Assembly: GCA_020445315.1 (NCBI GenBank)
Contig: JAGRGW010000149.1
Span: 1-32,087, forward strand
DNA: 32,087 nt
From: Gammaproteobacteria bacterium
GTDB taxonomy: Bacteria; Pseudomonadota; Gammaproteobacteria; Chromatiales; Chromatiaceae
Direction of reading: 5' to 3'
Part shown: positions 1,900-22,499 of the stretch, one piece after another
How the letters are laid out: each line of letters opens with the position of its first letter
How positions within the stretch are numbered: position 1 is the first letter of the stretch
The notes under the pieces: model-generated
Databases searched by the model: none
Told to the model about the DNA's origin: nothing
The model's input: only the letters and a program-made list of their open reading frames with translations
Made by a program: the position numbers and the translations under genes

Positions 1900-1970
1900 T
1901 GCCACAACGGCGACCCTGCCCTATCGATGACGAACGAGCAGATTGGCCTTTACGGCAAGGAATACGCCCC

Positions 1971-3392
1971 ATGAAACGTTTCAACGCACTGAGTATCCTG
2001 GTCTGTCTGGCAGCGGCCTTTGCCGTCAGCGGATACCCGAACTCAACCGAAGCGGAAGCCTCCGCTCTCACGCCGGAGGATGCCCGCTCCATCGCGAAAG
2101 ACGCTTATGTCTACGCCAATGCGGTGGTGGACAACTACCGCGTCTTCTACGGGGCCTTCGTCGACGAGACGGATCCGGAATACAAGACGCCGATCAACCG
2201 GCTCTTGAACCTGGCGCGGGTCTACACGCACGAGGACCGGGCCGTGCAGACGCCCAACTCGGACACTCCCTACAGCTGGCTGGCCCTGGATCTGCGCGCC
2301 GAGCCGTACGTGCTGACGGTGCCGGAGATCGGGGAGGAGCGCTATTTCAGCATCCAGCTCATCGATCTCTACACCCACAATTTTGCCTACATCGGCAGCC
2401 GGGCCACCGGCAACGGTGGCGGCCATTTCCTGATCGCAGGACCGGGTTGGCACGGTGACGTGCCCGGAGGCATCACCAAAGCGATCCAGGCCGAAACGGA
2501 ACTGGTAACTGCCGTCTATCGGACACAACTGTTCAATCCGGCGGACATCGAGAACGTGAAGGCCGTCCAGGCCGGCTACAAGGCGCAGCCCCTCTCCGCG
2601 TTTCTCGGCCAGCCGGCGCCCCAGGCCACCGCTGCCATCGACTTCATCGCGCCGTTGACGCGCGAGGAGATCACGCGATCGCCAAGGGTCTTCCAGCAGT
2701 TGAATTTCGTCCTGCAGTTCTGCCCCACGCACCCGTCCGAGCAAGCCCTCATGGCGCGTTTTGCCCGAGTCGGCATCGGCGCCGGAAAGACCTTCGACTG
2801 GGACGCTTTCCCACCCGATGTCCAGGAGGCCATCGGTCAGGGCATCGCCGACGCCTGGGCCGACTTTGCAACACTAAAGGAACGAGCCGACGCCGGCGAG
2901 GTCGGTTCCGGTGACGTATTCGGCACGAGGGAGCATCTGGAGAACAACTACCTTCATCGCATGGCCGGTGCCGTTCTTGGCATCTGGGGCAACAGCGAGG
3001 CCGAGGCGATCTACCCGTCCTACTACGTGGATGCCGACGGGGAGAAGCTCGACGGCGCCTATCGATATACCCTGCGGTTCGCGCCGGGTCGGTTGCCGCC
3101 CGTCAACGCGTTCTGGTCACTGACGATGTACGAATTGCCGGAGAGCCTGTTGGTGGAGAACCCCATCAACCGTTACCTGCTCAACTCACCCATGCTCGAT
3201 GATTTCGTACGCGACGATGACGGCGGGATCACGCTCCACCTGCAACACGTTTCCCCGGGCAAGGACAAGGAAGCCAACTGGTTGCCGGCGCCCAAGGGCC
3301 CATTCAGCGCGGTGCTGCGTCTCTACTGGCCGAAGCCCGAAGCAGTCGACGGCACCTGGCAGGTGCCACCGCTGGAGCGAGCCAAGCCGTGA
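1971..3392 (+). CDS. secreted DUF1254/DUF1214 domain protein
   Basis: The protein has 473 residues. I chose the ATG at 1971 because it opens directly onto a signal peptide (MKRFNALSILVCLAAAFA, cleavage near residue 28) and has a GGCAAGG element about 9 bases upstream. The frame is open further upstream to 1899, but that part lacks signal-peptide character. A DUF1254 domain fills roughly residues 40-175 (YVYANAVVDNYRVFYGAF, then QTPNSDTPYSWLALDLRAEP). A DUF1214 domain lies at about 345-470 (PPVNAFWSLTMYELP). The two domains normally occur together in exported proteins whose biochemical role is not settled. It starts 72 bases after the sulfatase stop, so the pair probably forms one transcript. 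A joint role is inferred from position only. Confidence 0.9.
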   Translation: MKRFNALSILVCLAAAFAVSGYPNSTEAEASALTPEDARSIAKDAYVYANAVVDNYRVFYGAFVDETDPEYKTPINRLLNLARVYTHEDRAVQTPNSDTPYSWLALDLRAEPYVLTVPEIGEERYFSIQLIDLYTHNFAYIGSRATGNGGGHFLIAGPGWHGDVPGGITKAIQAETELVTAVYRTQLFNPADIENVKAVQAGYKAQPLSAFLGQPAPQATAAIDFIAPLTREEITRSPRVFQQLNFVLQFCPTHPSEQALMARFARVGIGAGKTFDWDAFPPDVQEAIGQGIADAWADFATLKERADAGEVGSGDVFGTREHLENNYLHRMAGAVLGIWGNSEAEAIYPSYYVDADGEKLDGAYRYTLRFAPGRLPPVNAFWSLTMYELPESLLVENPINRYLLNSPMLDDFVRDDDGGITLHLQHVSPGKDKEANWLPAPKGPFSAVLRLYWPKPEAVDGTWQVPPLERAKP

Positions 3393-3458: not shown

Positions 3459-4718
3459 TTACGTCATGCGGATCGATACCATGACGCCGCCTCCGTCACG
3501 GTTGGCGACCCGGATCTGCCACCCGTACAGGTCGCACAACCGCTTGACGATATTGAGGCCGATCCCCTCACCTGCCTTCTGCACGCCACGGCCGCGCACA
3601 TGGCGATCGAAGATGTGCGGGATGAGCGCCTCGTCGATCCCACAGCCGCTGTCCTCCACGCGAATACCGTCGCGATCGACGCGGACGTGGATCACACCCT
3701 CGTCGGAGTAATTGATAGCGTTACGACAGAGGTTGCTGAGTATGATTTCGATGACCTTGCGATGGACCGGAACGCACAACGGTGCGACGGCTTCGAGCGT
3801 CATTTCCAGCGGCTTGCCGTCCAGCAGCGCGGCGAGCTTGCCGAGTTCGGCTTCCGCCACCCCGGCCACGTCAACCGCCTCGGCATCCTCCAGGCGCTTC
3901 GGCTCGCGACCGAGGATGAGAAAGGCGTCGATCAGTTCGGAGACATCCTTGCAGGCGCGGCGGATCATGCGGGCGCGACCGCTCCCCTTTTCGCCCAGTG
4001 CAGGTTCCGCCTCGAGGAACTGGGCGGCACCGTCGATGATCGTGATCGGCGTGCGCAATTCGTGACTGACGTCTGAACTGAAGCGGCGCTCACGTTCGAC
4101 GAGGTCTTCCAGCCGACGCTTGTACTCGTCCATGGCCAGGACCAGCTCGCGCGTTTCGCCCTTCAGTCCCTGCGTCGACAGCTCCGGTATGGGCTGGGCC
4201 GGTGAACTGTCGCGCAATCGGCGCGCGATACGCAGAACCGGAGACACGGCGCGCAGGCTCAGCCTGTACGCAACCCAACTGGTCCCGTAAACGATGATCA
4301 ACAACAGGGTGACGGGCACCAGGCCGAACAAACCCACCAGGCGATCGACGTTGTAGCCGGAGAACACGAGGTAGAGGCGCCCGCCGTCGAAGTCCTCCAC
4401 GTAAACGGGCAAAGGGCGTTCGTGGCCGGGAAGCGCCACGCCGCCGTGGAGACCCGGCGGCAGGGTCCGGAGGATTTCCGGTGTACTGCCGCGCCCGTCA
4501 CGATCGACCAGGTACCCCACGAGATTGCGCGTGCGCGGCAGCGGGTAGCCGGGATCCTGTTCGTAGGACTCGATGAACGTCTGCGCCTCGAGGGCCAGCG
4601 CCTGTCGAACCAGCACCTTCTGCAGCACCCAGGCCACGGCGGATACGCTCAACAACACGGCCAGGAAGATGAAGGCGCCCTGCAGCAACACGCGTTGCCA
4701 ACGTTCGCCTTCGTTCAT
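3459..4718 (-). CDS. sensor histidine kinase (HAMP/HisKA/HATPase_c)
   Basis: This is a 419-residue membrane sensor kinase of a two-component system. TM1 spans about residues 11-33, a periplasmic sensor region of about 95 residues follows, and TM2 spans about 127-150. A HAMP linker leads to HisKA, where the phospho-acceptor is His219 in SSDVSHELRTP. The ATPase domain shows the N box (NLCRNAIN, Asn333), the G1 box (EDSGCG, 355-360) and the G2 box (GEGIGLNI, 383-390), so it looks catalytically intact. Its start overlaps the response-regulator stop by 4 bases (ATGA), and it is the last gene of the ten-gene operon that begins at 12251. The periplasmic sensor domain matches no family I recognise, so the signal is unknown. 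The neighbouring lipid-modification genes suggest envelope or membrane stress. Confidence 0.94.
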   Translation of the reverse strand: MNEGERWQRVLLQGAFIFLAVLLSVSAVAWVLQKVLVRQALALEAQTFIESYEQDPGYPLPRTRNLVGYLVDRDGRGSTPEILRTLPPGLHGGVALPGHERPLPVYVEDFDGGRLYLVFSGYNVDRLVGLFGLVPVTLLLIIVYGTSWVAYRLSLRAVSPVLRIARRLRDSSPAQPIPELSTQGLKGETRELVLAMDEYKRRLEDLVERERRFSSDVSHELRTPITIIDGAAQFLEAEPALGEKGSGRARMIRRACKDVSELIDAFLILGREPKRLEDAEAVDVAGVAEAELGKLAALLDGKPLEMTLEAVAPLCVPVHRKVIEIILSNLCRNAINYSDEGVIHVRVDRDGIRVEDSGCGIDEALIPHIFDRHVRGRGVQKAGEGIGLNIVKRLCDLYGWQIRVANRDGGGVMVSIRMT

Positions 4719-5461
4719 GCCGGCGTGTCGCCCTTGTCGTGCAGCCGGTAACCCACCCCGTGCATGGTATGCAACAGTTTATGCGAGAACGGTTTGTCGA
4801 CAGCGTTGCGAATCGCCGAGATGTGCGTACGCAGCGCGTCACTGTCGGTCGGCGCGTCACCCCAGACATGGGTCTCGATCTCGCGTCGCGACACCACCCG
4901 GTGCTGGTTCTCCATCAACAACTGCAGGATCTTGAACGGAACCGGGTTCAGCGCCACCGGCTGGTCACCGCGTGCCACCTCGCGTGTCTCCGGATCCAGC
5001 GTCAGGTCGGCCACCTGCAACAAGGTGCGACCACCGAGCCCGAAACGCCGCCAGAGCGCCTGGACCCGGGCATAGACCTCGAGCATCTCGAACGGTTTGA
5101 CCAGGTAGTCGTCGGCGCCGGCGGCAAACCCGGCGAGCTTGTCGTCGAGGGTGTCACGCGCCGTCAGCATCAGGATCGGTATGTTCGAGCGTTTGACCGT
5201 GCGCAGTTGCTTGCACAGCTCCACCCCGTCGAGGCCCGGCAACGCCAGGTCGAGGACGATCACGTCGTGGTCCCCGCTGGCCGCCAGGTGCAGCCCGGTC
5301 AACCCGTCGTGCGCATAGTCGACGACATGACCGCGATCGCCGAAGAAGTCCACCAGCAAGGTCGCGATGTCGGTGTTGTCTTCGATAATCAAGACCCGAC
5401 CATGAAAATCGCTCAACGTTCCTGCCCGCCTTTCAGAAAGCCACGTCGATCGGCCGTGCAT
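4715..5461 (-). CDS. OmpR/PhoB-family response regulator
   Basis: This is a two-domain transcription factor. Counted from the ATG at 5461, the receiver has the acidic pair E27/D28, phospho-acceptor Asp71 (VIVLDLALPGLDG) and Lys122 (VKPFE). A winged-helix DNA-binding domain covers about 145-243 (RTHISAIRNAVDKP, HTMHGVGYRL). The start is uncertain. ATG 5461 would overlap the upstream methyltransferase by 29 bases. A TTG at 5416 begins nearer the receiver and has a purine-rich GCAGGA just before it. It is translationally coupled to the histidine kinase (4-base overlap) and is most simply its partner. The 11-bp-phased TCAA repeats at 12298-12335, at the head of this operon, are a plausible target, which would make the operon autoregulated. 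Confidence 0.94.
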   Translation of the reverse strand: MHGRSTWLSERRAGTLSDFHGRVLIIEDNTDIATLLVDFFGDRGHVVDYAHDGLTGLHLAASGDHDVIVLDLALPGLDGVELCKQLRTVKRSNIPILMLTARDTLDDKLAGFAAGADDYLVKPFEMLEVYARVQALWRRFGLGGRTLLQVADLTLDPETREVARGDQPVALNPVPFKILQLLMENQHRVVSRREIETHVWGDAPTDSDALRTHISAIRNAVDKPFSHKLLHTMHGVGYRLHDKGDTPA

Positions 5462-6704
5462 CCGGCTTGCTCAACAGCATCTGCACCGTACCGAGGTGGC
5501 GTTCGGCAAGACCGCCTTCGCTGTAGCACAGGTAGAACTCCCACATGCGGATGAACTCGTCCGGATAGCCAAGGGCTTTCACCTCCTGGAGTCGTGCCAT
5601 GAATCGCGCCCGCCAGTCCCGCAGCGTTCGGGCGTAGTGCAGCCCGATATCCTCGAGATGGGCAATACGCATGTCGCTGGCGCGTGTCAGCGCATTTGAC
5701 ATCGCTGTCACCGACGGCAGGAACCCACCCGGGAAAACGAATCGCTTGATGAAGTCTACCTCTTGCAATGCCTGTTTGTAGTACCGATCGTCAACGGTGA
5801 TCGCCTGGATCAACATCTGACCTTCCGGCTTGAGCAGCCGGCTGCACTGCGCGAAATAGGTCTCCATGAACTGGTGACCGACCGCCTCGATCATCTCGAT
5901 CGACACGATGCGATCGTAGCTGCCCCCGAGTTCCCGGTAGTCGTCGAAGCGGACATCGATAAGATCGGTCAAACCGGCTGCCGCGACCCGCTCCGTTGCC
6001 AGATCAAACTGCTCACGCGAGATCGTGGTCGTTGTGACGCGGCAGCCGTAATGCTTCGCCGCATGGATCGCGAGCCCGCCCCAACCAGTGCCGATTTCGA
6101 GCAAGTGATGCCCCGCCTGCAGGTCCAGCTTGCGGCATACGCGGTCGAGCTTGGCCACGGCGGCCGTGTCGAGATCGGTTTCCGGTGTCGTGTAATAGGC
6201 GCTGGAATACATCAGCTGCGGATCGAGAAACAGCCGGAACAGATCGTTGCCGATATCGTAATGCGCCTGGATGTTGCGGCGACTGCCCTCCCGGGTGTTG
6301 CGCTGCAGCCAATGCGCGAGCCGATGCAGCGGCCTTACCAGCAGGCTGACGCCACCGTCGACGGCATCCAGTACGGCGCGGTTGCGGAGAAACAGGCGGA
6401 CCAGGTCGGTCAACTGCTCGCAGTGCCACAGACCCTTGATAAAGGCCTCGCCAGCGCCCGCGGAACCGCCGAACGCCAGGTCCGACCAGGCGGCCGGATG
6501 ATCGATCCGCACGACCACGGACCGCGGCAGCACGTCACAAGGCGTACCGAACTGCCACACCCGGTCACCTTCCTCGATCTTCAGCAGACCGACCGAGAGA
6601 CGGTTCAGCTGGCGCAGCATCAACGACCGCGCCAGGCGGTCGAGCAATGAGTCTTCCCCACGTTCAGCGGAACCGGGGGCAGCGGGAACAATAGTGTCAG
6701 TCAT
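5433..6704 (-). CDS. CFA-synthase-like SAM-dependent fatty-acid methyltransferase
   Basis: The 423-residue protein belongs to the cyclopropane-fatty-acyl-phospholipid synthase family. Members use S-adenosylmethionine to methylate or cyclopropanate double bonds of phospholipid acyl chains. Visible motifs are HYDIGNDLFRLFLDP (148-162), the SAM-binding LLEIGTGWGGLAIHAA (201-216), and the SIEMIEAVGHQF segment with the conserved Glu. The segment that reads YSCGYW in E. coli Cfa is YSSAYY here, so the active-site Cys position (E. coli Cys139) is Ser168. This suggests a subfamily that may not make cyclopropanes. The start overlaps the DUF1365 stop by 4 bases. Together with the FAD oxidoreductase and DUF1365 it forms a commonly co-occurring trio. 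The gene symbol cfa is withheld because the product lipid is uncertain. Confidence 0.9.
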   Translation of the reverse strand: MTDTIVPAAPGSAERGEDSLLDRLARSLMLRQLNRLSVGLLKIEEGDRVWQFGTPCDVLPRSVVVRIDHPAAWSDLAFGGSAGAGEAFIKGLWHCEQLTDLVRLFLRNRAVLDAVDGGVSLLVRPLHRLAHWLQRNTREGSRRNIQAHYDIGNDLFRLFLDPQLMYSSAYYTTPETDLDTAAVAKLDRVCRKLDLQAGHHLLEIGTGWGGLAIHAAKHYGCRVTTTTISREQFDLATERVAAAGLTDLIDVRFDDYRELGGSYDRIVSIEMIEAVGHQFMETYFAQCSRLLKPEGQMLIQAITVDDRYYKQALQEVDFIKRFVFPGGFLPSVTAMSNALTRASDMRIAHLEDIGLHYARTLRDWRARFMARLQEVKALGYPDEFIRMWEFYLCYSEGGLAERHLGTVQMLLSKPDARPIDVAF

Positions 6705-7462
6705 GCTTGTTTATTCGCCACGACCGGCGTCTCCTTCGGCTTGGTATGAATATGCACGGGGGTCTTCTTCAGCCACAGGCACAATGCCTCGAAATAGATG
6801 GCGGCGATGACCTTCAGCGTTACGAACGGAAAAGCAAACAGGTTCCGCGCCAGGTTAGGGCCGCTGAACGGCTCCCGTTGCAGCACCAGCGAGGCATCGA
6901 ACAGGCGCTCACCGTTCTGCAGGTTCTCGATGTGCACGCTCAGGCGCTCGCCCGGGTCGCTGATCGCCCAGCGATAGGACATGTCGAGGTCCATGAAGGG
7001 CGAAACGTGGAACGTTTTTTGGCTCTCCGGTCGCTCGACGTCCATTGGCACCAGGTAACAGTGCTGTTCTCCCCAAGGGGTATTGTTGACCTCGGCGAGC
7101 ACGCACTGCGGGCGATCTTCGCGGTCATAGCAGAAGTAAAAGCTCACCGGATTGAAGCCGAAACCGAAGTAACGCAGGTGGGTGAGCAAACAGATCCGGC
7201 CCGACGGCATCTCGCCACCCAGCTCGACGACCTTTTGCCGGACCGCCTCCTGCAAAGACAGGTCCTGGGGCCCTAGGTGGTCACTGCGGCGGAAGCGCAC
7301 CGGTGCCGGACGCCGGCTGGAGCAGAACCAAAGCCGGTCCAACGTCTGCGGCAGCTCGTCCAGGTCGAGGTAGACCTGAAACAGGCGGTAGCGGAACGCG
7401 TGCCGGCGCGGCTTGTACCGGGTGTGCCTAACTTGCCCGCGATAGAGCGCGCTGCGCACCAT
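6701..7462 (-). CDS. DUF1365 domain-containing protein
   Basis: The 253-residue protein opens with the typical family start, ALYRGQVRHTRYKPRRHAFRYRL reduced here to its key elements ALYRG, RH and HAFRYR. Further conserved pieces are LTHLRYFGFGFNPVSFYFCY (about residues 135-154), EVNNTPWGEQHCYLV and FHVSPFMDLD. DUF1365 proteins are almost always encoded beside an FAD-dependent oxidoreductase and a CFA-like methyltransferase, as here. Their biochemical role is not established to my knowledge, although a part in fatty-acyl modification is implied. The start overlaps the oxidoreductase gene by 35 bases and the stop overlaps the methyltransferase start by 4 bases, indicating translational coupling. 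Hydrophobic stretches near the C terminus (ARNLFAFPFVTLKVIAAIYF) suggest membrane association. Confidence 0.92.
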   Translation of the reverse strand: MVRSALYRGQVRHTRYKPRRHAFRYRLFQVYLDLDELPQTLDRLWFCSSRRPAPVRFRRSDHLGPQDLSLQEAVRQKVVELGGEMPSGRICLLTHLRYFGFGFNPVSFYFCYDREDRPQCVLAEVNNTPWGEQHCYLVPMDVERPESQKTFHVSPFMDLDMSYRWAISDPGERLSVHIENLQNGERLFDASLVLQREPFSGPNLARNLFAFPFVTLKVIAAIYFEALCLWLKKTPVHIHTKPKETPVVANKQA

Positions 7463-8699
7463 TCACCTCCGAAAATTCATCCAATGCCTGCAGCGCACTG
7501 ACCACGCCGTCTTCGTGGAAACCGTTGCGCCAGTAGGCGCCGCAGTAGAACGTACGGTCGATACCGCTGATCTCACTGCGCCGCGCCTGGGCGACAACCG
7601 ATTCTTCCGTATAAACCGGGTGCTCGTAGACCATCCGTTTCAACACCCTCCCCGGGTCGACGGCCCCGGTGTCGTTGAGGGTCACGAGAAAACGTGTCGG
7701 TGCATCGAGGTTCTGCAGGCGGTTCATGTCGTAGGTCAGCGTCACCTTGTCGGTCTGTCCGGCCATGCGGTAGTTCCAGGACGCCCAGGCGAGGCACCGC
7801 GTCGGCATGACCGAAGTGTCGGTATGCAGCACTGCCTCGTTGCGCTGATAGCGCAGCTGCCCGAGCACCTCGCTCTCGGCGCGCGTTGGATCGGACAGCA
7901 TGGCCAGCGCCTGGTCGCTATGCGTCGCGATGAAGACGGCGTCGAACACCTCCGCGCCGTATGGGCGACTGACCACGCGCACACCGTGCGGCAGGCGGGT
8001 GACGGACTCTACCGGGGTGTCGAGTCGGATACCGGCGGCATACCCAGCCGACATCGGGGCCAGGTACTCGCGTGATCCACCGCGAATCACGTACCACTGC
8101 GGCCGGTCGTTCAGCGAGAGCAGGCCGTGGTTGACGAAGAAGCGGATGAAGAAGCGCGCTGGAAACTGTTGCATCTGCAACGGATCGGTCGACCATATCG
8201 CGGCTCCCATGGGTACGATGTAGCGGTTGACGAAGTCATCGGAATAACCCTGCCGCCGCAGGTATTCGCCCAGTGGCTGGTCAGCGCTGCCGTCCTCGAG
8301 CGATCGCGGCGCCTCGCGGTTGAAGCGCAGGATCTCTTTCAGCATACGCAGGAAGTCGGGCCGCACCAGGTTGCGTCGCTGCGCGAACAGGGTGTTGAGC
8401 GAATGGCCGTTGTATTCCAGGTCTGCGCCGTCGTCACGGACGCTGAAACTCATCTCGGTCGGTTCGTAGGCCACACCCAACGCGTTCAGCAATCGCTGGA
8501 AATTCGGATAGGTGCGGTCGTTGAACACGATGAAGCCGGTATCCACGGCATAGTGCCGGCCGGCCCATTCGATGTCGTGGGTATGCGTGTGACCGCCGAG
8601 GTGACTGGCGGCCTCGAACAGCGTCACGTCGTGCTCCCTGCACAGGTGGTAGGCGGCGGTGTTGCCGGCAATGCCACCCCCGATTACGGCAATCCTCAT
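7428..8699 (-). CDS. FAD-dependent oxidoreductase (flavin amine oxidase-like)
   Basis: The 423-residue protein begins with a Rossmann FAD-binding motif (RIAVIGGGIAGNTAAYHL, residues 2-19) and then FEAASHLGGHTHTH, the typical continuation in the flavin-containing amine oxidoreductase superfamily. VDTGFIVFNDRTYPNF and FIATHSDQAL are also characteristic of the subgroup found beside DUF1365 and CFA-like genes. In Rhodobacter, a flavoprotein of this general type acts with CFA-like methyltransferases to make methylated furan fatty acids (the Ufa pathway, from memory). A similar desaturation or oxidation of a fatty-acyl chain is therefore a reasonable inference here. The start overlaps the lipocalin stop by 4 bases. 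It lacks a signal peptide, so it should act on the cytoplasmic side. Confidence 0.9.
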   Translation of the reverse strand: MRIAVIGGGIAGNTAAYHLCREHDVTLFEAASHLGGHTHTHDIEWAGRHYAVDTGFIVFNDRTYPNFQRLLNALGVAYEPTEMSFSVRDDGADLEYNGHSLNTLFAQRRNLVRPDFLRMLKEILRFNREAPRSLEDGSADQPLGEYLRRQGYSDDFVNRYIVPMGAAIWSTDPLQMQQFPARFFIRFFVNHGLLSLNDRPQWYVIRGGSREYLAPMSAGYAAGIRLDTPVESVTRLPHGVRVVSRPYGAEVFDAVFIATHSDQALAMLSDPTRAESEVLGQLRYQRNEAVLHTDTSVMPTRCLAWASWNYRMAGQTDKVTLTYDMNRLQNLDAPTRFLVTLNDTGAVDPGRVLKRMVYEHPVYTEESVVAQARRSEISGIDRTFYCGAYWRNGFHEDGVVSALQALDEFSEVNGAQRALSRAS

Positions 8700-9235
8700 G
8701 AGTTCTCCTCCCAGCGTTGTGGTACCCGCTGCAGCTTGCTGATGTCGTAGCCGAGCGCGCGCACGTGCTCGACGAGAGACCGGTACGCGTCGTCGCTTAT
8801 CCGCGGTGAGCGCGCCATGATCCAGACGTAGTCGCGCTTGACGCGACCGATGATGGTGGTGCGGTAGTCCGGGTCGAGGTAAACGACGCGGTAATCGGCC
8901 CTGATCGGCCAGATGAACTGCATCCCCCAGATCGCGTTGCTGCCGTCGTCCCCGACGAACCCGACCGGCTCCATTTGCGCCCTTTCACCGTCGAACGATC
9001 CCTTGCGGTACGTAAAGGTCGTCTGGATCCTGTTGGGCCCTATCCGGTCGTACCTTTCGACGGCGTTGTAGATGTCCCGCTCGACAACAGTGGGTATGCT
9101 GGCGATCACGTACCAGTCGCCCATGAAGCGGTCGAGGTCGACGTGGGCCACGCCGGGCATGGGTGCGTGGCTGGCGCAGCCCGCGAGCGTGACCAGCAGC
9201 ACCAGCGCGAGCTTGAATCTGACAAAAGCACGCAC
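8696..9235 (-). CDS. lipocalin family lipoprotein (Blc-like)
   Basis: This is a 179-residue outer-membrane-type lipoprotein. I chose the GTG at 9235 because GAGGGG lies 7 bases upstream and the first 20 residues are a lipoprotein signal with lipobox LAGC (Cys20). The frame is open upstream to 9445, but that part overlaps the previous gene. DLDRFMGDWYVIASIPT is the lipocalin GxW signature. YRVVYLDPDYRTTIIGR and YVWIMARSPRISDDAY match later bacterial lipocalin segments. Blc-type lipocalins bind lysophospholipids and fatty acids in the envelope. Here it could carry or scavenge the modified lipid made by its operon. It starts 4 bases after the stop of the DUF6134 gene and its own stop overlaps the oxidoreductase start. 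Confidence 0.92.
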   Translation of the reverse strand: MRAFVRFKLALVLLVTLAGCASHAPMPGVAHVDLDRFMGDWYVIASIPTVVERDIYNAVERYDRIGPNRIQTTFTYRKGSFDGERAQMEPVGFVGDDGSNAIWGMQFIWPIRADYRVVYLDPDYRTTIIGRVKRDYVWIMARSPRISDDAYRSLVEHVRALGYDISKLQRVPQRWEENS

Positions 9236-9239
9236 CGCG

Positions 9240-9872
9240 TCACCCCTCGCGCCGCACATAGCGCAAAACCCGGCCATTCTCGACTTGGGTCTGCAATGCC
9301 TGCCAGCTACAGCCTGCGTCGTACCATAGATCGATCCTGACGCCCTGGCCCACGTCGAGGCGGTATTGCCGATCGCCGTATGCCCGCCCCTGGAACTGCA
9401 GCGGCTGCTCCGCCACCTCGACCAGCCTGGCCGGTTCGTAGTCACCGGTCTGGGTGTTCAGAAGGAAGTCGTGCTCGAGTAGCCGGGGATTCCAGTACGC
9501 AAAGGTGCGGACACATCCACCGATTCGCACCTGCCGGTCCGCAACGGTCACGAGCAGGTCATCGGCGACGCGGCTGGCATCGACCCGGTACCGCTCCCCG
9601 TCGTCGTCGGTCCTCGTTTTCAGGTTGGCGATACAGTCGCCATGCCAGACCTCGTCGGCCTGGTGCCGGTAGCTGAACGCGTTGAAGAACAGGATATCGA
9701 TCGACATCTCCGCCTCTACGCTCACACGACGTTGGTCGGCGTCCTGCTGAATCTGCACGCGGTGAACACCCACGGGCCTGTCGTCGAGATAGATGTCGAA
9801 CGCAAGCTCCGATTGTGCGGCACCGGCCCCGAATGCCGAGGCGAGGAGCAGTGTGGCGAACTGTGCTCTCAC
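9240..9872 (-). CDS. DUF6134-like secreted protein
   Basis: The 210-residue exported protein starts at GTG 9872, which overlaps the preceding DUF1295 stop (GTGA, 4 bases). Residues 1-20 (VRAQFATLLLASAFGAGAAQ) form a signal peptide with cleavage near AAQS. The mature part is beta-rich (LAFDIYLDDRPVGVHRVQI, FFNAFSYRHQADEVWHGDC) and resembles DUF6134, a family of periplasmic proteins with no assigned activity. Similar proteins tend to occur in lipid-modification clusters of this kind, by my recollection. Two Cys in the second half (in GGCVRTF and DAGCSW) could form a disulfide. Function unknown. A periplasmic accessory role in lipid handling is inferred from the operon only. Confidence 0.78.
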   Translation of the reverse strand: MRAQFATLLLASAFGAGAAQSELAFDIYLDDRPVGVHRVQIQQDADQRRVSVEAEMSIDILFFNAFSYRHQADEVWHGDCIANLKTRTDDDGERYRVDASRVADDLLVTVADRQVRIGGCVRTFAYWNPRLLEHDFLLNTQTGDYEPARLVEVAEQPLQFQGRAYGDRQYRLDVGQGVRIDLWYDAGCSWQALQTQVENGRVLRYVRREG

Positions 9873-10669
9873 GACTGCTGCCCCTTCAAGCCGGTCGGGT
9901 CGGCGGAGTTGCCCGGCCGCCACGGGATAAAGGCCGGCGTCGTCTGCTTGTAACGACGGTACGCAGGGCGCCGTTCGTGGATATCGCTCTCGAGCAGCGT
10001 GACGCCGGACACCCTGAGCAGCAGGAAGGTCATCAATACCGGTGCAAACACGGTCCAGGCCGCCCCGCTGGCCAGCGCGAAAAGGTAGAAACTCCACCAG
10101 ACGACGGCCTCGCCAAAGTAATTGGGATGACGGCTGAAGCGCCAAAGGCCCTGGTCCAGTACAGCGCCCTTGTTTTGCGGATTGGCCTTGAAGCGCATCA
10201 ACTGCCAGTCGGCCACGGCCTCGAACGCGAAGCCGACCAGGAACAACACCACGGCGACCAGGTGCAGGGGCTGCAGTGCCGCGGGCATCGCGAACGCAGC
10301 GGCGAGTGGCAACGATATCAACCAGGCCAACACCGCCTGCAAACCGAATACGGTGACCAGGCTCCGTCGATTGAAACCGGGACTTGCGTCGCGCATGGCC
10401 GCGTAGCGCCTGTCCTCCGGCTTGCCCGCATTGCGCCACGCCAGGTGCAGCGACAGCCTCAGCGACCACGCGGCAACCAGCACGAACAGCAACAGGCTGC
10501 TGGGCATTACTGCGCCGCCGGCGGCCAGGTAAACGACGGCGGAGACCAGAAAAAACAGCGACCAGAGGCTGTCGACAATGTTGACGTTCTCACGCCGCGC
10601 CGCATATGCCCAGCCCAGTGACGCCATCACCAGGAGCAGCGGCAGGGTAACCATCCAGGTGCCGATCAT
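9869..10669 (-). CDS. DUF1295 membrane protein (steroid 5-alpha-reductase/ICMT-like fold)
   Basis: The 266-residue polytopic membrane protein has about six or seven hydrophobic segments. The C-terminal signature GLWRFSRHPNYFGEAVVWWSFYLFAL (key elements RFSRHPNYFGE) is the hallmark of DUF1295 and the related isoprenylcysteine methyltransferase and steroid 5-alpha-reductase superfamily. NVNIVDSLWS near residue 28 is also typical of DUF1295. Family members bind NADPH or SAM at that C-terminal region and act on lipophilic substrates inside the membrane. A reductase or methyltransferase step on the acyl chain is therefore possible here. The start overlaps the DUF2878 stop by 4 bases and the stop overlaps the DUF6134 start by 4 bases. 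Confidence 0.9.
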   Translation of the reverse strand: MIGTWMVTLPLLLVMASLGWAYAARRENVNIVDSLWSLFFLVSAVVYLAAGGAVMPSSLLLFVLVAAWSLRLSLHLAWRNAGKPEDRRYAAMRDASPGFNRRSLVTVFGLQAVLAWLISLPLAAAFAMPAALQPLHLVAVVLFLVGFAFEAVADWQLMRFKANPQNKGAVLDQGLWRFSRHPNYFGEAVVWWSFYLFALASGAAWTVFAPVLMTFLLLRVSGVTLLESDIHERRPAYRRYKQTTPAFIPWRPGNSADPTGLKGQQS

Positions 10670-11211
10670 CGCGAGACCTCCAGGGACGTGTTCAACCTGC
10701 GTTCGAACCCGTCGTAACGTTGCGACAGGCGCATCAGCAGCGGGAACAGCGTGGCCCAGCCGACAGCGAGAACGATCATGGTCAGGCCGGTATCGGGAAA
10801 CACCACGGCGCCGAGCCGTTCACCGGCAAGAAACGCCAGCGGACCACCGATCGCGCCGAACAGCGCCGCAAGCAGGTACCGTCCCTTGAGCCAGCGCAAC
10901 GACACGTTCAGCGTGATCGCCAGCAGCGGCCACATCGCCAGTATCCACGCCGGCGCCAGCTGTCCGAACGGCTGGCCGCTCGGGTAGATCACCAGCCCGC
11001 TGACACTGACGAGGTTTTCCCAGACCAGTCCAAACGCCAGCGCGTAGGCCATCAGTTTCTGCTCTGCGGCCCGGTCGGCACTGGTCGACAGGTGAACCAG
11101 CAGGATCAGCAGCACGACGCCTGGCGCCAGCCAGTGCCAATCGCCCGCGCCCATCAGAACACTGGCAAACCAGCCCAGCTGGAACATCAGGAAATTCAGC
11201 AGCCCGCTCAT
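10666..11211 (-). CDS. DUF2878 family membrane protein
   Basis: The 181-residue protein is almost entirely hydrophobic, with about five or six TM segments (for example FLMFQLGWFASVLMGA, LAPGVVLLILLVHL, PAWILAMWPLLAITLNVSL). I chose the ATG at 11211 because it overlaps the stop of the upstream methyltransferase (ATGA) and begins with the family-typical MSGLLNFLMFQLGW. The open frame upstream to 11319 overlaps that gene and has no membrane character. DUF2878 proteins are commonly found beside CFA-like methyltransferases and DUF1365 (recollection). No activity is established. A membrane scaffold or transporter role is possible but unsupported. Confidence 0.88.
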   Translation of the reverse strand: MSGLLNFLMFQLGWFASVLMGAGDWHWLAPGVVLLILLVHLSTSADRAAEQKLMAYALAFGLVWENLVSVSGLVIYPSGQPFGQLAPAWILAMWPLLAITLNVSLRWLKGRYLLAALFGAIGGPLAFLAGERLGAVVFPDTGLTMIVLAVGWATLFPLLMRLSQRYDGFERRLNTSLEVSR

Positions 11212-12251
11212 ACCGGTTCCTTGGCGAAGCGGTAGTGCGCGACGAACCACTCCTGACCATCGCGGTAGGCGAACAGCACGGCGCAGGCCATGAAGAACAT
11301 GCGCCAGCGCTGCCACCACAGGCCGGCGAAATCACGACCGTAGGTCTGTTCGAACAACGGCCGCAGCTCGGATCGGCGCGCGTCCATGCGTTCCAGCCAG
11401 GCATTGCACGTCCGCGCATAGTGCTCGCCCGACCAGAACCAGCGCCGCTCCAGCGTGAACGGCGAATGCACCCGCAGCGGCAGGTCGGCGCTGGGCATCA
11501 TGCCGCCGGCGAAGAAATGGCGACTCATCCAGTCCGCCGGCCCCTTGTCCTCGAACAGGTAGGGTACGCGACGATGCACGAAGATGTGCACGAACAGGCG
11601 GCCCGACGCGTTCAGCCATTCGGCCGCACGACCCAGCAGAGCCTCCCAGTTGCGCATGTGTTCGAACATCTCGACCGACACGATGCGATCGAAGCGGCCT
11701 TCCGGCTGGAAATCGTTCATGTCCGCGGTCACGACGCGAACATTGCTCAGCCCTTGCGCCGCGGCCCGATCGCGGATGAAACGACCCTGGGACCGGGAGT
11801 TGGAGACAGCGACGATCTCGCTACCGGGAAAGCGATCGGCCATGTACAGGGTGAGTGACCCCCAACCACACCCCAGTTCGAGGATGCGGTGGCCGTCCTG
11901 TATCGCGGCGTGGTCGACCGTGGCGGCAAGCGCGGCGGCCTCGGCGTCGTCGAGGCTCGTCACGCCTGCCGGCCAATAGCCGCAACTGTACTTGCGATGA
12001 CCACCAAGGACCTGGTCGAAGAACTCGGCCGGCACCTCGTAATGCTGTTCGTTGGCGAGTTCGGGCACCTCGGCGACAGGTCCGGAGCGCATGGCGTCGA
12101 GAAAATCCTGTTCGGCCACGGCGGCGCGCTCGATGTCGTCGGCCGAGATCTCGGCGAGACGCTCGCGCAACAGGTGCCGGATCCCGGCACGAATGATCGC
12201 GTCGGGAAGCATCCCCTTCTCAGAAAGTTCCTGCGCCGTGTGCTGATTCAT
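11208..12251 (-). CDS. second CFA-synthase-like SAM-dependent methyltransferase
   Basis: The 347-residue protein is the first gene of the ten-gene operon. I chose the ATG at 12251 because GGAGG lies 6 bases upstream. The frame reaches 12302, but that would place the start inside the phased repeat element. HYEVPAEFF (about residue 70) precedes YSCGYW, which keeps the Cys (Cys90) equivalent to E. coli Cfa Cys139. The SAM site is LELGCGWGSLTLYMA (124-138), and VEMFEHM keeps the conserved Glu and His. It is only distantly similar to the gene at 5433-6704 and lacks that protein's long N-terminal domain, so the two are not a recent duplication. It probably transfers a one-carbon unit to an unsaturated acyl chain. 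Whether it makes a cyclopropane or a methyl branch is unknown. Confidence 0.88.
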   Translation of the reverse strand: MNQHTAQELSEKGMLPDAIIRAGIRHLLRERLAEISADDIERAAVAEQDFLDAMRSGPVAEVPELANEQHYEVPAEFFDQVLGGHRKYSCGYWPAGVTSLDDAEAAALAATVDHAAIQDGHRILELGCGWGSLTLYMADRFPGSEIVAVSNSRSQGRFIRDRAAAQGLSNVRVVTADMNDFQPEGRFDRIVSVEMFEHMRNWEALLGRAAEWLNASGRLFVHIFVHRRVPYLFEDKGPADWMSRHFFAGGMMPSADLPLRVHSPFTLERRWFWSGEHYARTCNAWLERMDARRSELRPLFEQTYGRDFAGLWWQRWRMFFMACAVLFAYRDGQEWFVAHYRFAKEPV

Positions 12252-12294
12252 GATTGGCCTCCATCTAGAGCTTTTCACGAAGGCTACGCGCAGG

Positions 12295-12337
12295 TTTGTC
12301 AAACGGTCGTCAAGGAGATCTCAAAATTTCGTCAAAA
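12295..12337. promoter_or_regulatory. 11-bp-phased TCAA direct repeats, probable OmpR-family operator
   Basis: GTCAA, GTCAA, CTCAA and GTCAA begin at 12298, 12309, 12320 and 12331, an exact 11-base period over four copies. On the operon's strand they read TTGAC/TTGAG. The copy nearest the gene is part of TTGACA (12302-12297), a perfect -35 hexamer lying 46 bases before the methyltransferase ATG. No good -10 lies 16-18 bases downstream (CGTGAA), as expected for an activator-dependent promoter. OmpR/PhoB-type regulators bind head-to-tail half-sites spaced by one 11-bp helical turn. The operon encodes such a regulator. Binding itself is inferred. Confidence 0.6.
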
Positions 12338-12518
12338 CCGCGAACAAAACCCTTGCCTGTCCGTTGATTTGAAGACATCGATGAAGCGGCAAGCCAGGTA
12401 CACGGATCAAGTCCGCGAAGCATCGTTCGATCGCTACTGAGGTACGATGGCGTCGGACACCGACATCGATGGTTTCCCCAAGACCTGCCCCACTCCACCT
12501 GACGACGGAAGCAACGTG

Positions 12519-13589
12519 ATGCACCTGCGAGACATGCTATTGAGCCTGTGGACCATCGTTATGCTGGCCAGCCCGGCTTTTGCAACAGGCGAGGTCTATC
12601 ACCTCCGCCTGGCGCAGAGCTGGCCGACGAACGCGCCCTTGATGGGCGACGCGCCGAGGCAGATGGCAGCATTGGCGGATAGCCTGTCCGGCGGCCGCCT
12701 GAAGATCACCGTCGACTCGGCCAACAAGCACAAGGCGCCGCTGGCCGTGTTCGACATGGTCAAGGCCGGCCACTACGACATGGGACACTCGGCCTCCTAC
12801 TACTGGAAGGGCAAACTCCCCAACGCGCAATACTTCACGACCATGCCGTTCGGCATGACGACACCGGAACAGTTCGCCTGGTTCTATCACGGCGGTGGTC
12901 TGCAACTGATGGAGAAGGTCTACGCACCGCACGGCGTGCTGTCGTTTCCCGGTGGTAACTCCGGCGGGCAGATGGCCGGCTGGTTCCGCAAGGAGATCAA
13001 CGCTGTCGACGACCTCAAGGGCCTGAAGATCCGCATCCCCGGTTTCGCCGCGGAAATCATGGCCGAACTCGGCGCCGTACCGACCAACATCGCCCAGGGC
13101 GACCTCTACACCGCGCTGGACCGCAAGACCATCGACGCCGTCGAGTGGGTCGGGCCGTCGCTGGACCTGCGCATGGGTTTCCAGAAGATCGCGCCGTACT
13201 ACTACACCGGCTGGCACGAACCCGGCGCAGACCTCCAGTTTCTCGTCCACGAAAAGACCTACCGCGCGCTGCCGCCCGACCTGCAGGCCGTGCTCGAGGC
13301 CGCGATGCGGCTGGCCGCGTTCGACACCTACGTGAGCTTCTACCACGAAAGCGCCGTCGAGCTGGCCCGCTTGCGCACGGAGTTCCCGAACGTGCAGATC
13401 AGGCCGTTTCCGGCCGATGTCGTGCAGGCCCTGCGCGAGGCCTACCGGCGACTGCTGGCACAACAGGCGGCACGTGACCCGCTCGCACGGGAGATCATCG
13501 AATCGCTCGGGTCCTACCGCCGGATCGCCAGGGACTGGACGCGGGTATCCGACGGCACCTTTCTCGACCTCGTCGCCGGTGACGACTGA
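12519..13589 (+). CDS. TRAP transporter substrate-binding protein (DctP family)
   Basis: The 356-residue periplasmic receptor starts at ATG 12519 with a signal peptide (MHLRDMLLSLWTIVMLASPAFA). A GTG one codon earlier is an alternative. YHLRLAQSWPTNAPLMGDA opens the mature domain. LKGLKIRIPGFAAEIMAELGAVPTNI and ALDRKTIDAVEWVGPSLDLRMGF are DctP-family hallmarks, and the Arg in KIRIPG is the residue that normally pairs with the substrate carboxylate. The wider sequence resembles the TakP-like alpha-keto-acid group. No dctQ or dctM membrane genes are adjacent, so it is an orphan here. It is divergent from the lipid operon and shares the 267-base intergenic region at 12252-12518. A role in fatty- or keto-acid uptake is only a guess. 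Confidence 0.9.
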   Translation: MHLRDMLLSLWTIVMLASPAFATGEVYHLRLAQSWPTNAPLMGDAPRQMAALADSLSGGRLKITVDSANKHKAPLAVFDMVKAGHYDMGHSASYYWKGKLPNAQYFTTMPFGMTTPEQFAWFYHGGGLQLMEKVYAPHGVLSFPGGNSGGQMAGWFRKEINAVDDLKGLKIRIPGFAAEIMAELGAVPTNIAQGDLYTALDRKTIDAVEWVGPSLDLRMGFQKIAPYYYTGWHEPGADLQFLVHEKTYRALPPDLQAVLEAAMRLAAFDTYVSFYHESAVELARLRTEFPNVQIRPFPADVVQALREAYRRLLAQQAARDPLAREIIESLGSYRRIARDWTRVSDGTFLDLVAGDD

Positions 13590-13596
13590 TTCCGGC

Positions 13597-13653
13597 TAGT
13601 GTGGGCCATGCGGATGATTCTGAGCGTTACAGAATTATCCGCATGGCCCACTA
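13597..13653. terminator. long perfect hairpin between convergent genes
   Basis: The arms 13602-13622 and 13630-13650 pair over 21 positions with a single G-T wobble (13616/13636) and a 7-base loop. TAG at 13597 and CTA at 13651 extend the pairing past a 2-base bulge. The element sits 12 bases after the TRAP gene stop. Its far end overlaps the stop codon of the DUF2894 gene on the other strand, so it is placed to terminate both convergent transcripts. There is no T tract on either side, so simple Rho-independent termination is not certain. An RNA-stabilising or mobile palindrome is an alternative. Confidence 0.55.
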
Positions 13654-14532
13654 ACGCCGTCGCTTGCGCGCGGGTTTCTTTTTGCCGCCCACCGATTCGG
13701 CGGCACGCTGCAACCACAGCACGGTGTCCATGTGCGCGACGAACCGCCTGGCGAATGCCGGCGAGATCTCGTGCATCATCGCCAGGTGGCGCGCAACCAG
13801 CGCCTGGGCATTCAACGGCCCGCGATCCTCTTCGCCGACCTGCAGCTCCCGCGTGACCCGCTGCTGCGCCTGGTGCGCCTGCAGCGACTGGCGCAGGCGG
13901 CGCATCGCGCCGAGTTCGACGGTGTCTTCCGCAGACGCGGCGGCCGGCCGGTATCCGCGCCGTGCGGGCTGCAGCAGTTCCCGGTCCTGTTGCCGCAGGG
14001 CCGCTGCCAGGGAGCCGTCCTGCGCGGGTTCGTCGTCCGGGTCGCTGCGCGGCACCGCGTCGCGCAGCGCCGACAGTTGGCCGGTGCGGTAGCCGTGCAC
14101 CGGGCGACTCCCGGCATGGCGCAGGACCCGTTTGAACTCGCCCCGCGCGAACGCCTGCTCCAGCTCGACCTCGCGGCCGGGGTCTTCTGCCGCGATGCGT
14201 TCGAGTACGCCGCCCGCCTGCTCCCGCGCCGCCACGAAATCGTCGTGGTAGCCCTTCATCGCCCGCAGTGCCTTCCGTGCCAGCATGTCGGCCACCGCCG
14301 GTCGCTGCTTGCCGGCACGCTCGGCGAGCGCCTGGATGAAACAGGCCCGCACGGGATCGTACTGGCCGATACCGCTGTCGACGAACGCCCGCAGCGCGGC
14401 CGGCAGGCGCTCGGGGGCGTCGACGTCGATGTCGGCCAGCGCATCAATACCGGGTACGGAGTCGTTATCCAGCTTGCTGCGCACAGCGGGCGCTTTCCGG
14501 CCTTTCGTCATCCGATCCGCGCCCCTGCTCAA
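13651..14532 (-). CDS. DUF2894 domain-containing protein
   Basis: The 293-residue, mostly helical, cytoplasmic-type protein has no signal peptide or TM segment. Residues 23-150 are rich in Ala, Arg and Glu with helical heptad character. A linker rich in Gln, Asp and Pro covers about 155-200. The C-terminal part (VARHLAMMHEISPAFARRFVAHMDTVLWLQ, about 247-275) is the most family-like block, and the protein ends in a strongly basic tail (KKKPARKRRR). I assign DUF2894 mainly because this protein ends the characteristic DUF3348-DUF802-OmpA-DUF2894 operon. Its start overlaps the OmpA gene stop by 4 bases (ATGA). No activity is known. The basic tail could bind nucleic acid or membrane. An effector or regulator of the neighbouring motor proteins is inferred. 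Confidence 0.8.
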   Translation of the reverse strand: MSRGADRMTKGRKAPAVRSKLDNDSVPGIDALADIDVDAPERLPAALRAFVDSGIGQYDPVRACFIQALAERAGKQRPAVADMLARKALRAMKGYHDDFVAAREQAGGVLERIAAEDPGREVELEQAFARGEFKRVLRHAGSRPVHGYRTGQLSALRDAVPRSDPDDEPAQDGSLAAALRQQDRELLQPARRGYRPAAASAEDTVELGAMRRLRQSLQAHQAQQRVTRELQVGEEDRGPLNAQALVARHLAMMHEISPAFARRFVAHMDTVLWLQRAAESVGGKKKPARKRRR

Positions 14533-15221
14533 CCGCCCTGCGCGCTGCGGGGAACCGGCGCCATTTCGACCCGTCGATTCTGCGACCGGCTCTGGTCATC
14601 GTCGTTCGGCACGATCGGCTGCTGTGCACCGAACGCGGCAGCGAACACCCGCTGCGGCGACATGCCCTGTTCGATCAGTGCGCGGGTGACCGTCAACGCG
14701 CGCTGCGCCGACAGCTCCCAGTTGTCGAGGTAGCGGCTGTTGCCCTTCTGGATCGGCAGGTCATCGGTGAACCCGCTGACCATCAACAGTTCGTCGCGCT
14801 CCTCCAGGTAGACCTGCAGCGGGCCGACCAGCGTCTGCAGCAGGCGCGCGCCCTCCGGCTCCAGCCGGTCGGAGTTCAACGAGAACAGGAACCGGCCGCT
14901 GATGCCGATGCGACCGTCGCGCAACGTCACGCGCCCGGTCGCCAGCGGGTCGGCCAACGCAGCCTCCAGCGCGAGGCGACGACGTTCCGCTTCTTCGCGC
15001 AAGCGCTCGGCGGCCAGGCGGCGCTCCTGCTCGGCGATGCGTCGCTGCTCCTCGACCTGGCGCCTGGCCACTTCCTCGCGCAGGCTCTCGTCGAGCTGCA
15101 GCTGGTAGCCGATGAACCAGACGACCAGCAGCACGAAGACGCCGGCCAGGCCGGCCATCAGGTCACCGAATACCGCCCAGATTGGCGGTGCCGGCGCATG
15201 ATGCTCGTCCCACTCGTCCAT
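14529..15221 (-). CDS. OmpA/MotB-like stator B-subunit protein
   Basis: The 230-residue protein has one TM helix near the N terminus (about residues 17-39) and an acidic residue at its start (VFGDLMAGLAGVFVLLV, Asp20). This is where MotB and ZorB carry their proton-binding Asp. A charged helical stalk (about 42-92) follows, then an OmpA-like peptidoglycan-binding domain (about 100-222) with GFTDD, NWELSAQRALTVTRALI and the final SRSQNRRVEM motif. This architecture belongs to peptidoglycan-anchored stator subunits, not to outer-membrane porins. It overlaps the DUF802 gene by a single base (TGATG). Its likely partner is the channel protein encoded immediately upstream. Flagellar MotB is unlikely because no flagellar genes are present and the A subunit is of another type. 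Confidence 0.9.
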   Translation of the reverse strand: MDEWDEHHAPAPPIWAVFGDLMAGLAGVFVLLVVWFIGYQLQLDESLREEVARRQVEEQRRIAEQERRLAAERLREEAERRRLALEAALADPLATGRVTLRDGRIGISGRFLFSLNSDRLEPEGARLLQTLVGPLQVYLEERDELLMVSGFTDDLPIQKGNSRYLDNWELSAQRALTVTRALIEQGMSPQRVFAAAFGAQQPIVPNDDDQSRSQNRRVEMAPVPRSAQGG

Positions 15222-18171: not shown

Positions 18172-18453
18172 GCCGGGCACCTGCCGCGTAACGCAAAAGA
18201 CCGTCCAGTCCCTGCCGTCGCCGAGCACGGGCCGGCAGGTAAGGCGTTGCCAATTCGATGCATGCAGAAATCCGACGACTGAAGAACTACGGGGGCGCAG
18301 GGACCGGCGGGATGGGATGCTGCGGCACACCCTCTCGCGGATCGAAGCGAGGGCGAAGTATAAACCGGCTTGGGATTCGTCGCCCGCGTGCACCTGCGGC
18401 AGCGGGCAGGCGGCCCCGGATCGATAAACGGGCGGCAGGAGCCACCCGGGCGT
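18172..18453. other. intergenic region upstream of DUF3348 operon
   Basis: No supported gene lies in these 282 bases. On the minus strand a good -10 hexamer TATACT (18362-18357) could drive the DUF3348 operon, although no convincing -35 is visible 16-18 bases upstream. An imperfect inverted repeat (CCTCTCGC / GCGAGGG, about 18331-18353) lies just downstream of it. The region also contains the 3' flank of the hydrolase gene, with no obvious T-tailed terminator. Confidence 0.3.
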
Positions 18454-22162: not shown

Positions 22163-22499
22163 ACAGGCTGTTATAGCCGTTGTTGCTTCCCTGCGCGCGA
22201 CTTGCATTCCCGCTGAAGGACCGGCAGCCGTGAGCATCGACAGCCCGTCGACCAGGGTGCGCGAGATGATGCGGACGTTCGCTTCACGACCCGTAGCGGG
22301 GGCCACCTGTACGAAGCTTTTTCGGGACCAGTCGTTTACTTTCTGTTTACCGCAGTCAAAGTGATTCGATTTATTTACAAAGGCACGTAAAGCAATCTTA
22401 TTTTTCTCTTTTTTTCATATGGTTACCTGATTGGCGCGGGTTATGCTTGGATGTATTTGTATTCAAGCTGTTACGCAAATCGCCGTTGGGAATCCGGTT
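22163..22499. promoter_or_regulatory. divergent intergenic region with AT-rich core and paired GTTTAC repeats
   Basis: This 337-base gap separates the ACP-ligase gene (minus) from the two-TM hypothetical gene (plus). The part at 22330-22430 is AT-rich, with a T-rich run at about 22398-22416. GTTTAC occurs at 22334 and 22345, exactly 11 bases apart, with a looser ATTTAC at 22373. On the plus strand TTGGCG (22431) and TATTTG (22454) are 17 bases apart and could form a weak promoter for the gene at 22500. Part of the gap nearest 22162 could be coding if the ligase gene starts further upstream. Confidence 0.4.

What the first reader, a model, noticed from the sequence alone, without database searches (positions are those of the whole stretch)
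5433..12251. Eight-gene lipid-modification cassette with two different CFA-like methyltransferases
The sequence shows methyltransferase, DUF2878, DUF1295, DUF6134, lipocalin, FAD oxidoreductase, DUF1365 and a second methyltransferase, nearly all joined by 4-base overlaps. Known family facts: CFA-like enzymes modify acyl-chain double bonds, and flavoproteins of this type act with them in furan fatty acid synthesis. Inference: the set makes an unusual methylated, furan or cyclopropyl fatty acid in three compartments (cytoplasm, inner membrane, periplasm). Two distinct methyltransferases and a reductase-like DUF1295 suggest more steps than known pathways.
Basis: partly seen in the sequence, partly recalled or inferred. 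Interest (0 to 1): 0.75.

Follow-up and report, generated by a model that had tools for sequence, protein, structure and literature searches.

The report
Dimethyl furan fatty acid operon
This is a compact bacterial operon that very probably makes furan fatty acids, membrane lipids that soak up damaging forms of oxygen, by a known enzyme route including the second methyltransferase that adds an extra methyl group, and it ties to that last step a reductase-like membrane protein and a lipid-carrier protein whose roles have not been worked out.

Summary
The eight genes are there as described, in one tight run on the minus strand. They are best read as a complete dimethyl-furan-fatty-acid operon: FAD oxidoreductase = UfaD, DUF1365 = UfaO, methyltransferase 5433-6704 = UfaM, methyltransferase 11208-12251 = FufM. 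These enzymes form the route worked out in Rhodobacter sphaeroides and Rhodopseudomonas palustris (PMC7380195). Tree, active-site residues, gene order and co-occurrence agree. What the known route does not explain is the helper set. DUF1295 and the lipocalin go with FufM (DUF1295 in 25/36 FufM loci, but in 3/40 UfaD-UfaO-UfaM loci of FufM-less genomes); DUF2878 goes with furan cassettes in general. DUF1295 resembles NADPH steroid and sterol reductases; I propose, as inference, that it reduces ene-diones formed when furans are oxidised. The operon runs on into a two-component system and has a conserved array of 11-base-spaced TTGA[C/G] repeats at its promoter, suggesting PhoB-type control in place of the RpoE-ChrR control known elsewhere.

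The parts
12298..12335 (-). Four TTGA[C/G] direct repeats at exact 11-base spacing, candidate response-regulator site
   Evidence: Three copies at the same distance from the start codon in G042 and G037; 0, 1 and 0 of 20000 dinucleotide shuffles reach 3 copies; no other array in the window
12281..12286 (-). Candidate -10 element TAGCCT, 10 bases after the last repeat
   Evidence: Read from the sequence; TAGACT and TAAAGT at the matching place in G042 and G037; inference
11208..12251 (-). FufM orthologue, candidate furan fatty acid C-methyltransferase
   Evidence: 49% identity to R. palustris FufM; FufM clade 100/100; CMAS domain
10666..11211 (-). DUF2878 protein, about five membrane spans
   Evidence: Pfam; hydropathy; 81 of 83 Pseudomonadota genomes with it also have DUF1365
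9869..10669 (-). DUF1295 protein, about six membrane spans, steroid-reductase-like, candidate NADPH C=C reductase
   Evidence: Pfam; profile hits to 7c83 and 7bw1; near FufM in 25/36 loci against 3/40 controls
9240..9872 (-). DUF6134 protein, probably periplasmic
   Evidence: Pfam; signal-like N-terminus read from the sequence; alignment
8696..9235 (-). Lipocalin with lipobox LAGC, probable Blc-like lipoprotein
   Evidence: Pfam Lipocalin_2; NCBIfam Blc below cut-off; lipobox
7428..8699 (-). UfaD orthologue, FAD fatty acyl desaturase
   Evidence: 42% identity to R. palustris UfaD, as between R. palustris and C. johrii; gene order
6701..7462 (-). UfaO orthologue (DUF1365), furan-forming oxygenase
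   Evidence: Pfam 282 bits; 37% to R. palustris UfaO; first row of the alignment with the invariant residues
5433..6704 (-). UfaM orthologue, acyl-chain methyltransferase
   Evidence: UfaM clade 100/99; UfaM active-site signature
4715..5416 (-). OmpR/PhoB-type response regulator (TTG start)
   Evidence: Pfam Response_reg and Trans_reg_C; 72% identical at the same place in G042; start choice
3459..4718 (-). Histidine kinase with two membrane spans and a periplasmic segment
   Evidence: Pfam HisKA and HATPase_c; 65% identical at the same place in G042; hydropathy

Best explanation
This is a dimethyl-furan-fatty-acid operon acting on acyl chains of phospholipids. Step 1: UfaM methylates cis-vaccenoyl chains. 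Step 2: UfaD (FAD) desaturates the product to a methyl-branched 10,12-diene. Step 3: UfaO (DUF1365) adds oxygen from O2 and closes the furan ring. Step 4: FufM methylates the ring to the dimethyl form. These four steps are shown experimentally for the reference enzymes and inferred here by orthology. DUF1295, DUF2878, DUF6134 and the lipocalin are a helper module; DUF1295 probably reduces an oxidation product of the dimethyl furan, and the lipocalin and DUF6134 probably handle lipid in the periplasm (inference only). The response regulator encoded at the end probably activates the operon from the TTGA[C/G] repeats (inference). Confidence 0.85 is for the four-step core; for the DUF1295 reductase role alone about 0.3; for the control about 0.6.
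For: Published functions of UfaM, UfaD, UfaO and FufM (PMC7380195). Orthology by tree, active-site residues and identity levels like those between the reference genera for UfaD and UfaO. UfaD-UfaO-UfaM order as in 38 of 40 control loci. FufM genomes have DUF1365 in 34/37 (phylum) and 22/22 (family) cases. Whole operon conserved in L138 and largely in L163, L164, L195. DUF1295 and lipocalin tied to FufM. FufM tracks photosynthesis genes in the family, fitting a role against singlet oxygen. Repeats.
Against: No lipid has been measured in this organism. Substrate positions may differ from vaccenate. The FufM clade may hold enzymes with other substrates: six FufM-like genes of one genus (L225-L230) have altered motifs and lack the neighbours. 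The window genome and G042 lack reaction-centre genes, so the stress met here is unknown. FufM alone sufficed for the dimethyl product in R. sphaeroides, so no helper is strictly required.
Confidence: 0.85

Rival explanations
1. The operon makes cyclopropane or plain methyl-branched fatty acids; DUF1295 saturates the methyl-ene and no furan is made.
For: Both methyltransferases match the CMAS family, and the closest solved structures of the 5433-6704 protein are cyclopropane synthases.
Against: The 5433-6704 protein has Ser, Glu-Ala and Gln where cyclopropane synthases have Cys, Glu-His and His and is in the UfaM clade. UfaD and UfaO, whose known roles lead to the furan, are in the same run.
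Confidence: 0.07
2. The 11208-12251 enzyme is not a furan methylase but methylates an amine, like its nearest solved relative coclaurine N-methyltransferase.
For: Best structure match is a coclaurine N-methyltransferase (6gkv, E 1e-62).
Against: 49% identical to R. palustris FufM and in its clade; FufM genes co-occur with DUF1365 and often sit beside UfaD-UfaO-UfaM. The plant enzymes were not placed in the tree.
Confidence: 0.07
3. DUF1295 is not a reductase but a membrane methyltransferase, or a partner that helps FufM reach the lipid.
For: Weak Pfam matches to ICMT and PEMT, an ICMT among the profile hits (4a2n, E 0.007), and the FufM-specific linkage.
Against: Better matches to steroid 5-alpha-reductases and sterol reductases in Pfam (Steroid_dh 8e-9) and among structures. 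All are weak, and the predicted fold was too poor to decide. FufM works without it in vitro.
Confidence: 0.3
4. The two-component genes are merely neighbours, and the operon is controlled by another regulator.
For: L163, L164 and L195 carry the operon without this response regulator beside it; most furan operons known are under RpoE-ChrR (PMC6852236).
Against: Response regulator and kinase conserved at the same place in G042; promoter repeats of the type OmpR/PhoB regulators use are conserved in three species; no ChrR in the window genome.
Confidence: 0.35

Closest known systems
R. sphaeroides and R. palustris furan fatty acid pathway (UfaM, UfaD, UfaO, FufM; PMC7380195)
   Same: All four enzymes present, with clade membership, active-site signature and UfaD-UfaO-UfaM order.
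   Different: In R. palustris FufM is at a separate locus and in R. sphaeroides UfaM is separate; here everything is one operon with DUF2878, DUF1295, DUF6134, lipocalin and a two-component system.
Aeromonas salmonicida cfa operon with SDR, FAD oxidoreductase, DUF1365, DUF2878 (PMC10012899)
   Same: FAD oxidoreductase, DUF1365, CFA-type methyltransferase and DUF2878 in one predicted operon.
   Different: The listed operon has no second methyltransferase, DUF1295, DUF6134 or lipocalin, and has an SDR and an NTF2-like gene instead.
Chlamydomonas SAK1-dependent singlet-oxygen genes (PMC4067076)
   Same: CFA1, CFA2, a DUF1365 and a DUF1295 gene are all induced by singlet oxygen and need SAK1.
   Different: Separate nuclear genes; whether furan fatty acids are made there was still under study in 2021 (PMC8491031).
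Halomonas sp. YLGW01 ufaM locus (PMC12089945)
   Same: Consecutive ufaD, ufaO and ufaM in a gammaproteobacterium; UfaM gave 11-methyloctadecenoate in E. coli.
   Different: No FufM or helper genes are described.

Membership tests
UfaM | Clade with experimentally tested UfaM, apart from cyclopropane synthases | tested here: met
   UfaM clade 100/99 with R. palustris UfaM; E. coli Cfa and four paralogs outside
UfaM | UfaM-type active site (Ser/Ala, Glu-Ala, Gln in place of Cys, Glu-His, His) | tested here: met
   YSSAYY, IEMIEAV, LIQAI in the window; same pattern in R. palustris and C. johrii
UfaM | Methylates vaccenoyl chains | not testable with these tools
   Needs lipid analysis
UfaD | FAD amine-oxidase-like protein next to UfaO, identity in the range of the references | tested here: met
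   42% to R. palustris and C. johrii, which are 42% to each other; order as in 40/40 control loci
UfaO | DUF1365 protein with the residues shared by reference UfaO | tested here: met
   Pfam 282 bits; in the alignment with the references
FufM | Clade with R. palustris FufM | tested here: met
   100/100 clade; 49% identity
FufM | Found only with UfaM, UfaD and UfaO | tested here: met
   34/37 phylum genomes and 22/22 family genomes have DUF1365; the three misses are in one genus
FufM | Methylates the furan ring | not testable with these tools
   Needs enzyme assay
Cyclopropane fatty acid synthase | Catalytic Cys and His of the bicarbonate site | tested here: not met
   Absent in the 5433-6704 protein
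RpoE-ChrR (ECF11) regulated furan operon | ChrR anti-sigma factor in the genome | tested here: not met
   No ChrR match in the window genome, which is 80% complete; present in R. palustris and C. johrii
PhoB-type activated promoter | 11-base direct repeats ending about 10 bases before the -10 | tested here: met
   Four copies in the window, three in G042 and G037; binding not tested, geometry rule from own knowledge
Steroid 5-alpha-reductase-like reductases (DUF1295) | Sequence and fold relationship with NADPH-site residues | tested here: inconclusive
   Profile hits 7c83 (8e-4) and 7bw1 (3e-3), but ICMT too; model too poor

The most novel reading that the evidence does not exclude
DUF1295 makes the dimethyl furan a renewable antioxidant. 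Singlet oxygen or radicals open the furan to an ene-dione; DUF1295, a steroid-reductase-like membrane enzyme, reduces its C=C with NADPH to a saturated 1,4-dione, which can close again to a furan by loss of water, so the scavenger is recycled instead of spent. The lipocalin and DUF6134 would handle oxidised lipid on the periplasmic side.
Probability: 0.12. Interest if true: 0.82.

Novelty: new variant of a known kind. Interest (0 to 1): 0.52.

Why it matters
Furan fatty acids are antioxidants in bacteria, algae, plants and fish. Their synthesis is known in outline, but what cells do with the oxidised product, and what the conserved DUF neighbours do, is open. The survey around this operon singles out DUF1295 and a lipocalin as partners specific to the dimethyl form, gives DUF1295 a concrete testable role, and points to a form of control other than RpoE-ChrR. 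An R. palustris deletion of RPA0923, apparently the DUF1295 gene beside fufM, was already built (PMC7380195), so the question could be tested at once.

Tried and rejected
Cyclopropane or simple branched-chain reading: rejected on active-site residues and tree. More methylation steps than known: not needed once FufM orthology was found. RpoE-ChrR control: no ChrR in the window genome. PDB profile searches with DUF1365 and DUF6134 found no relative. NCBIfam has no match above cut-off for the four pathway enzymes. Dufour et al. 2008 on the core RpoE-ChrR regulon is not held, so whether the helper genes were noted there is unchecked. A search for furan fatty acids in Chromatiaceae found no paper.
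Full report
Check of the observation. The eight genes exist as described. On the minus strand the order is methyltransferase 11208-12251, DUF2878, DUF1295, DUF6134, lipocalin, FAD oxidoreductase, DUF1365, methyltransferase 5433-6704. Five of seven junctions are 4-base overlaps, one is a 35-base overlap and one a 4-base gap. After 16 more bases the unit continues into a response regulator and a histidine kinase. In a complete genome of the same genus (G042, locus L138) the same ten genes lie in the same order, 46-72% identical. Two further genomes of the family (L163, L164) and genomes outside it (such as L195) carry most or all of the eight genes.

What the enzymes are. Lemke et al. 2020 (PMC7380195) showed that UfaM methylates cis-vaccenoyl chains on phospholipids, UfaD desaturates the product, UfaO (a DUF1365 protein) inserts oxygen from O2 to give the monomethyl furan, and FufM, a second methyltransferase, gives the dimethyl furan. 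As anchors I fetched named Rhodopseudomonas palustris and Cereibacter johrii genomes; C. johrii stands in for R. sphaeroides. R. palustris has three strong CMAS genes, as in the paper, and their identities to C. johrii UfaM (51% for UfaM, 37% for the RPA3082 type, 28% for FufM) fit the published 38% and 26% for the last two. The window's 5433-6704 protein is 41% identical to R. palustris UfaM, and its 11208-12251 protein 49% identical to R. palustris FufM. UfaD is 42% and UfaO 37% identical to R. palustris, close to the values between R. palustris and C. johrii (42% and 39%).

Identity alone does not separate UfaM from cyclopropane synthases (the RPA3082 type is 39% identical to the window protein), so two further tests were used. 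In a maximum-likelihood tree of 72 proteins the window enzymes fall in a UfaM clade (100/99) and a FufM clade (100/100), each with the R. palustris reference. At the cyclopropane-synthase active site, E. coli Cfa and the four paralogs have Cys, Glu-His and His. All UfaM-clade proteins, references and window included, have Ser or Ala, Glu-Ala and Gln. The FufM clade mostly has VEMFEHM and keeps the last His. The window UfaM is therefore unlikely to make cyclopropanes. The E. coli sequence and the roles of those residues are from own knowledge.

Genome-scale association. In 397 Pseudomonadota genomes FufM occurs in 37 and DUF1365 in 185; 34 of the 37 have both (p 1.5e-9). DUF2878 occurs in 83, of which 81 have DUF1365. 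In 96 genomes of the window's own family all 22 FufM genomes and all 20 DUF2878 genomes have DUF1365, and 17 of the 20 DUF2878 genomes have FufM, although in many of them the DUF2878-DUF1295-lipocalin unit lies at a separate place. Counts by genus remain significant; the p-values do not correct for relatedness.

Which helper goes with which step. I compared 36 FufM loci with 40 DUF1365 loci from genomes lacking FufM. In the controls UfaD and UfaO are together in 40/40 and UfaM in 38/40. DUF1295 is in 25/36 FufM loci against 3/40 controls (p 1e-8), and the lipocalin in 9/36 against 0/40 (p 7e-4). DUF2878 (7/36 against 10/40) and DUF6134 (3/36 against 9/40) do not discriminate. So DUF1295 and the lipocalin are tied to the dimethyl branch, and DUF2878 and perhaps DUF6134 to furan cassettes in general. 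In R. palustris the DUF1295 gene lies directly upstream of fufM. Lemke et al. built deletions of RPA0923 alone and with fufM, but the main text gives no result for them; that RPA0923 is the DUF1295 gene is inferred from gene order. In Chlamydomonas two CFA-type genes, a DUF1365 gene and a DUF1295 gene are among those needing SAK1 for induction by singlet oxygen (PMC4067076).

What DUF1295 may do. A 24-sequence profile finds, among solved structures, steroid 5-alpha-reductases (7c83, E 8e-4; 7bw1, E 3e-3), then ICMT and Delta14-sterol reductases. The first and last are NADPH enzymes acting on C=C bonds (own knowledge). Furan fatty acids are oxidised to dioxoenes (PMC12595405, PMC2914009), and singlet oxygen promotes destruction of furan fatty acids (PMC6852236). 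An ene-dione is an enone, the substrate type of steroid 5-alpha-reductases. The simplest proposal is that DUF1295 reduces that product, either to detoxify it or, more boldly, to recycle it. This is inference. Structure prediction here was too poor to help.

Control. The window genome has no ChrR match (genome 80% complete), unlike R. palustris and C. johrii. Upstream of fufM there are four TTGA[C/G] repeats at exactly 11-base spacing (12298-12335), followed after 10 bases by TAGCCT. G042 and G037 have three such repeats at the same distance from the start codon, followed by TAGACT and TAAAGT. Dinucleotide shuffles of each 120-base upstream region gave three or more copies in 0, 1 and 0 of 20000 cases, and no other such array lies in the window or those two loci. 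The pattern was noticed by eye in the window and then found in the other two. With an OmpR/PhoB-type regulator in the same run, self-activated PhoB-like control is likely but unproven.

Setting. 31 of the 96 family genomes have photosynthetic reaction-centre genes, so the family includes many phototrophic purple bacteria. FufM follows them: 19 of 22 FufM genomes (p 2e-9). The three exceptions are the window genome, G042 and G037; they form one FufM clade and share the promoter repeats. The operon form seen here may therefore belong to non-phototrophic members; the window genome is incomplete, but G042 is complete.

Verdict. A real, conserved operon whose chemistry is largely explained by a published pathway. 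The new content is the joining of the whole dimethyl route in one unit, the FufM-specific link of DUF1295 and the lipocalin, and the likely two-component control. I found no report of these, but key papers outside the open library could not be read.

Noticed in passing
window 13651-18393, minus strand: A type III Zorya anti-phage defence set: ZorG-like 17383-18393, ZorA-like 15221-17386, ZorB-like 14529-15221 and ZorF-like 13651-14532.
   Followed up: partly
window 19301-22306, minus strand: A 1001-residue protein joining a carrier (PP-binding) domain, an AMP-binding ligase and an acyltransferase, possibly an acyl-transfer enzyme for lipids.
   Followed up: no
L225-L230: Six FufM-like genes of one genus lack the DUF1295 and UfaD-UfaO-UfaM neighbours, and most have changed motif residues (FERM or FEQM, MQIV); three of the genomes, including L226 and L227-L228, lack DUF1365. 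They may have taken on another role.
   Followed up: partly
L148-L151, L153-L155, L157-L158, L160-L162: A DUF2878-DUF1295 unit, usually with a lipocalin and sometimes DUF6134, standing away from the UfaD-UfaO-UfaM genes in phototrophic relatives, often beside a pair of ABC-transporter genes.
   Followed up: partly
L140, L141 (genome G083): Two separate UfaD-UfaO-UfaM sets in one phototrophic member of the same genus, both only about 38-39% identical to the window UfaM and grouping with the alphaproteobacterial side of the tree.
   Followed up: no
L163, L164: The DUF2878 match is split in two pieces inside one open frame of about 340 residues, so the protein may be enlarged or rearranged there.
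   Followed up: no
window 1899-3392 (+) and 12447-13589 (+): A DUF1254/DUF1214 protein and a DctP-type solute-binding protein flank the operon on the opposite strand.
   Followed up: no
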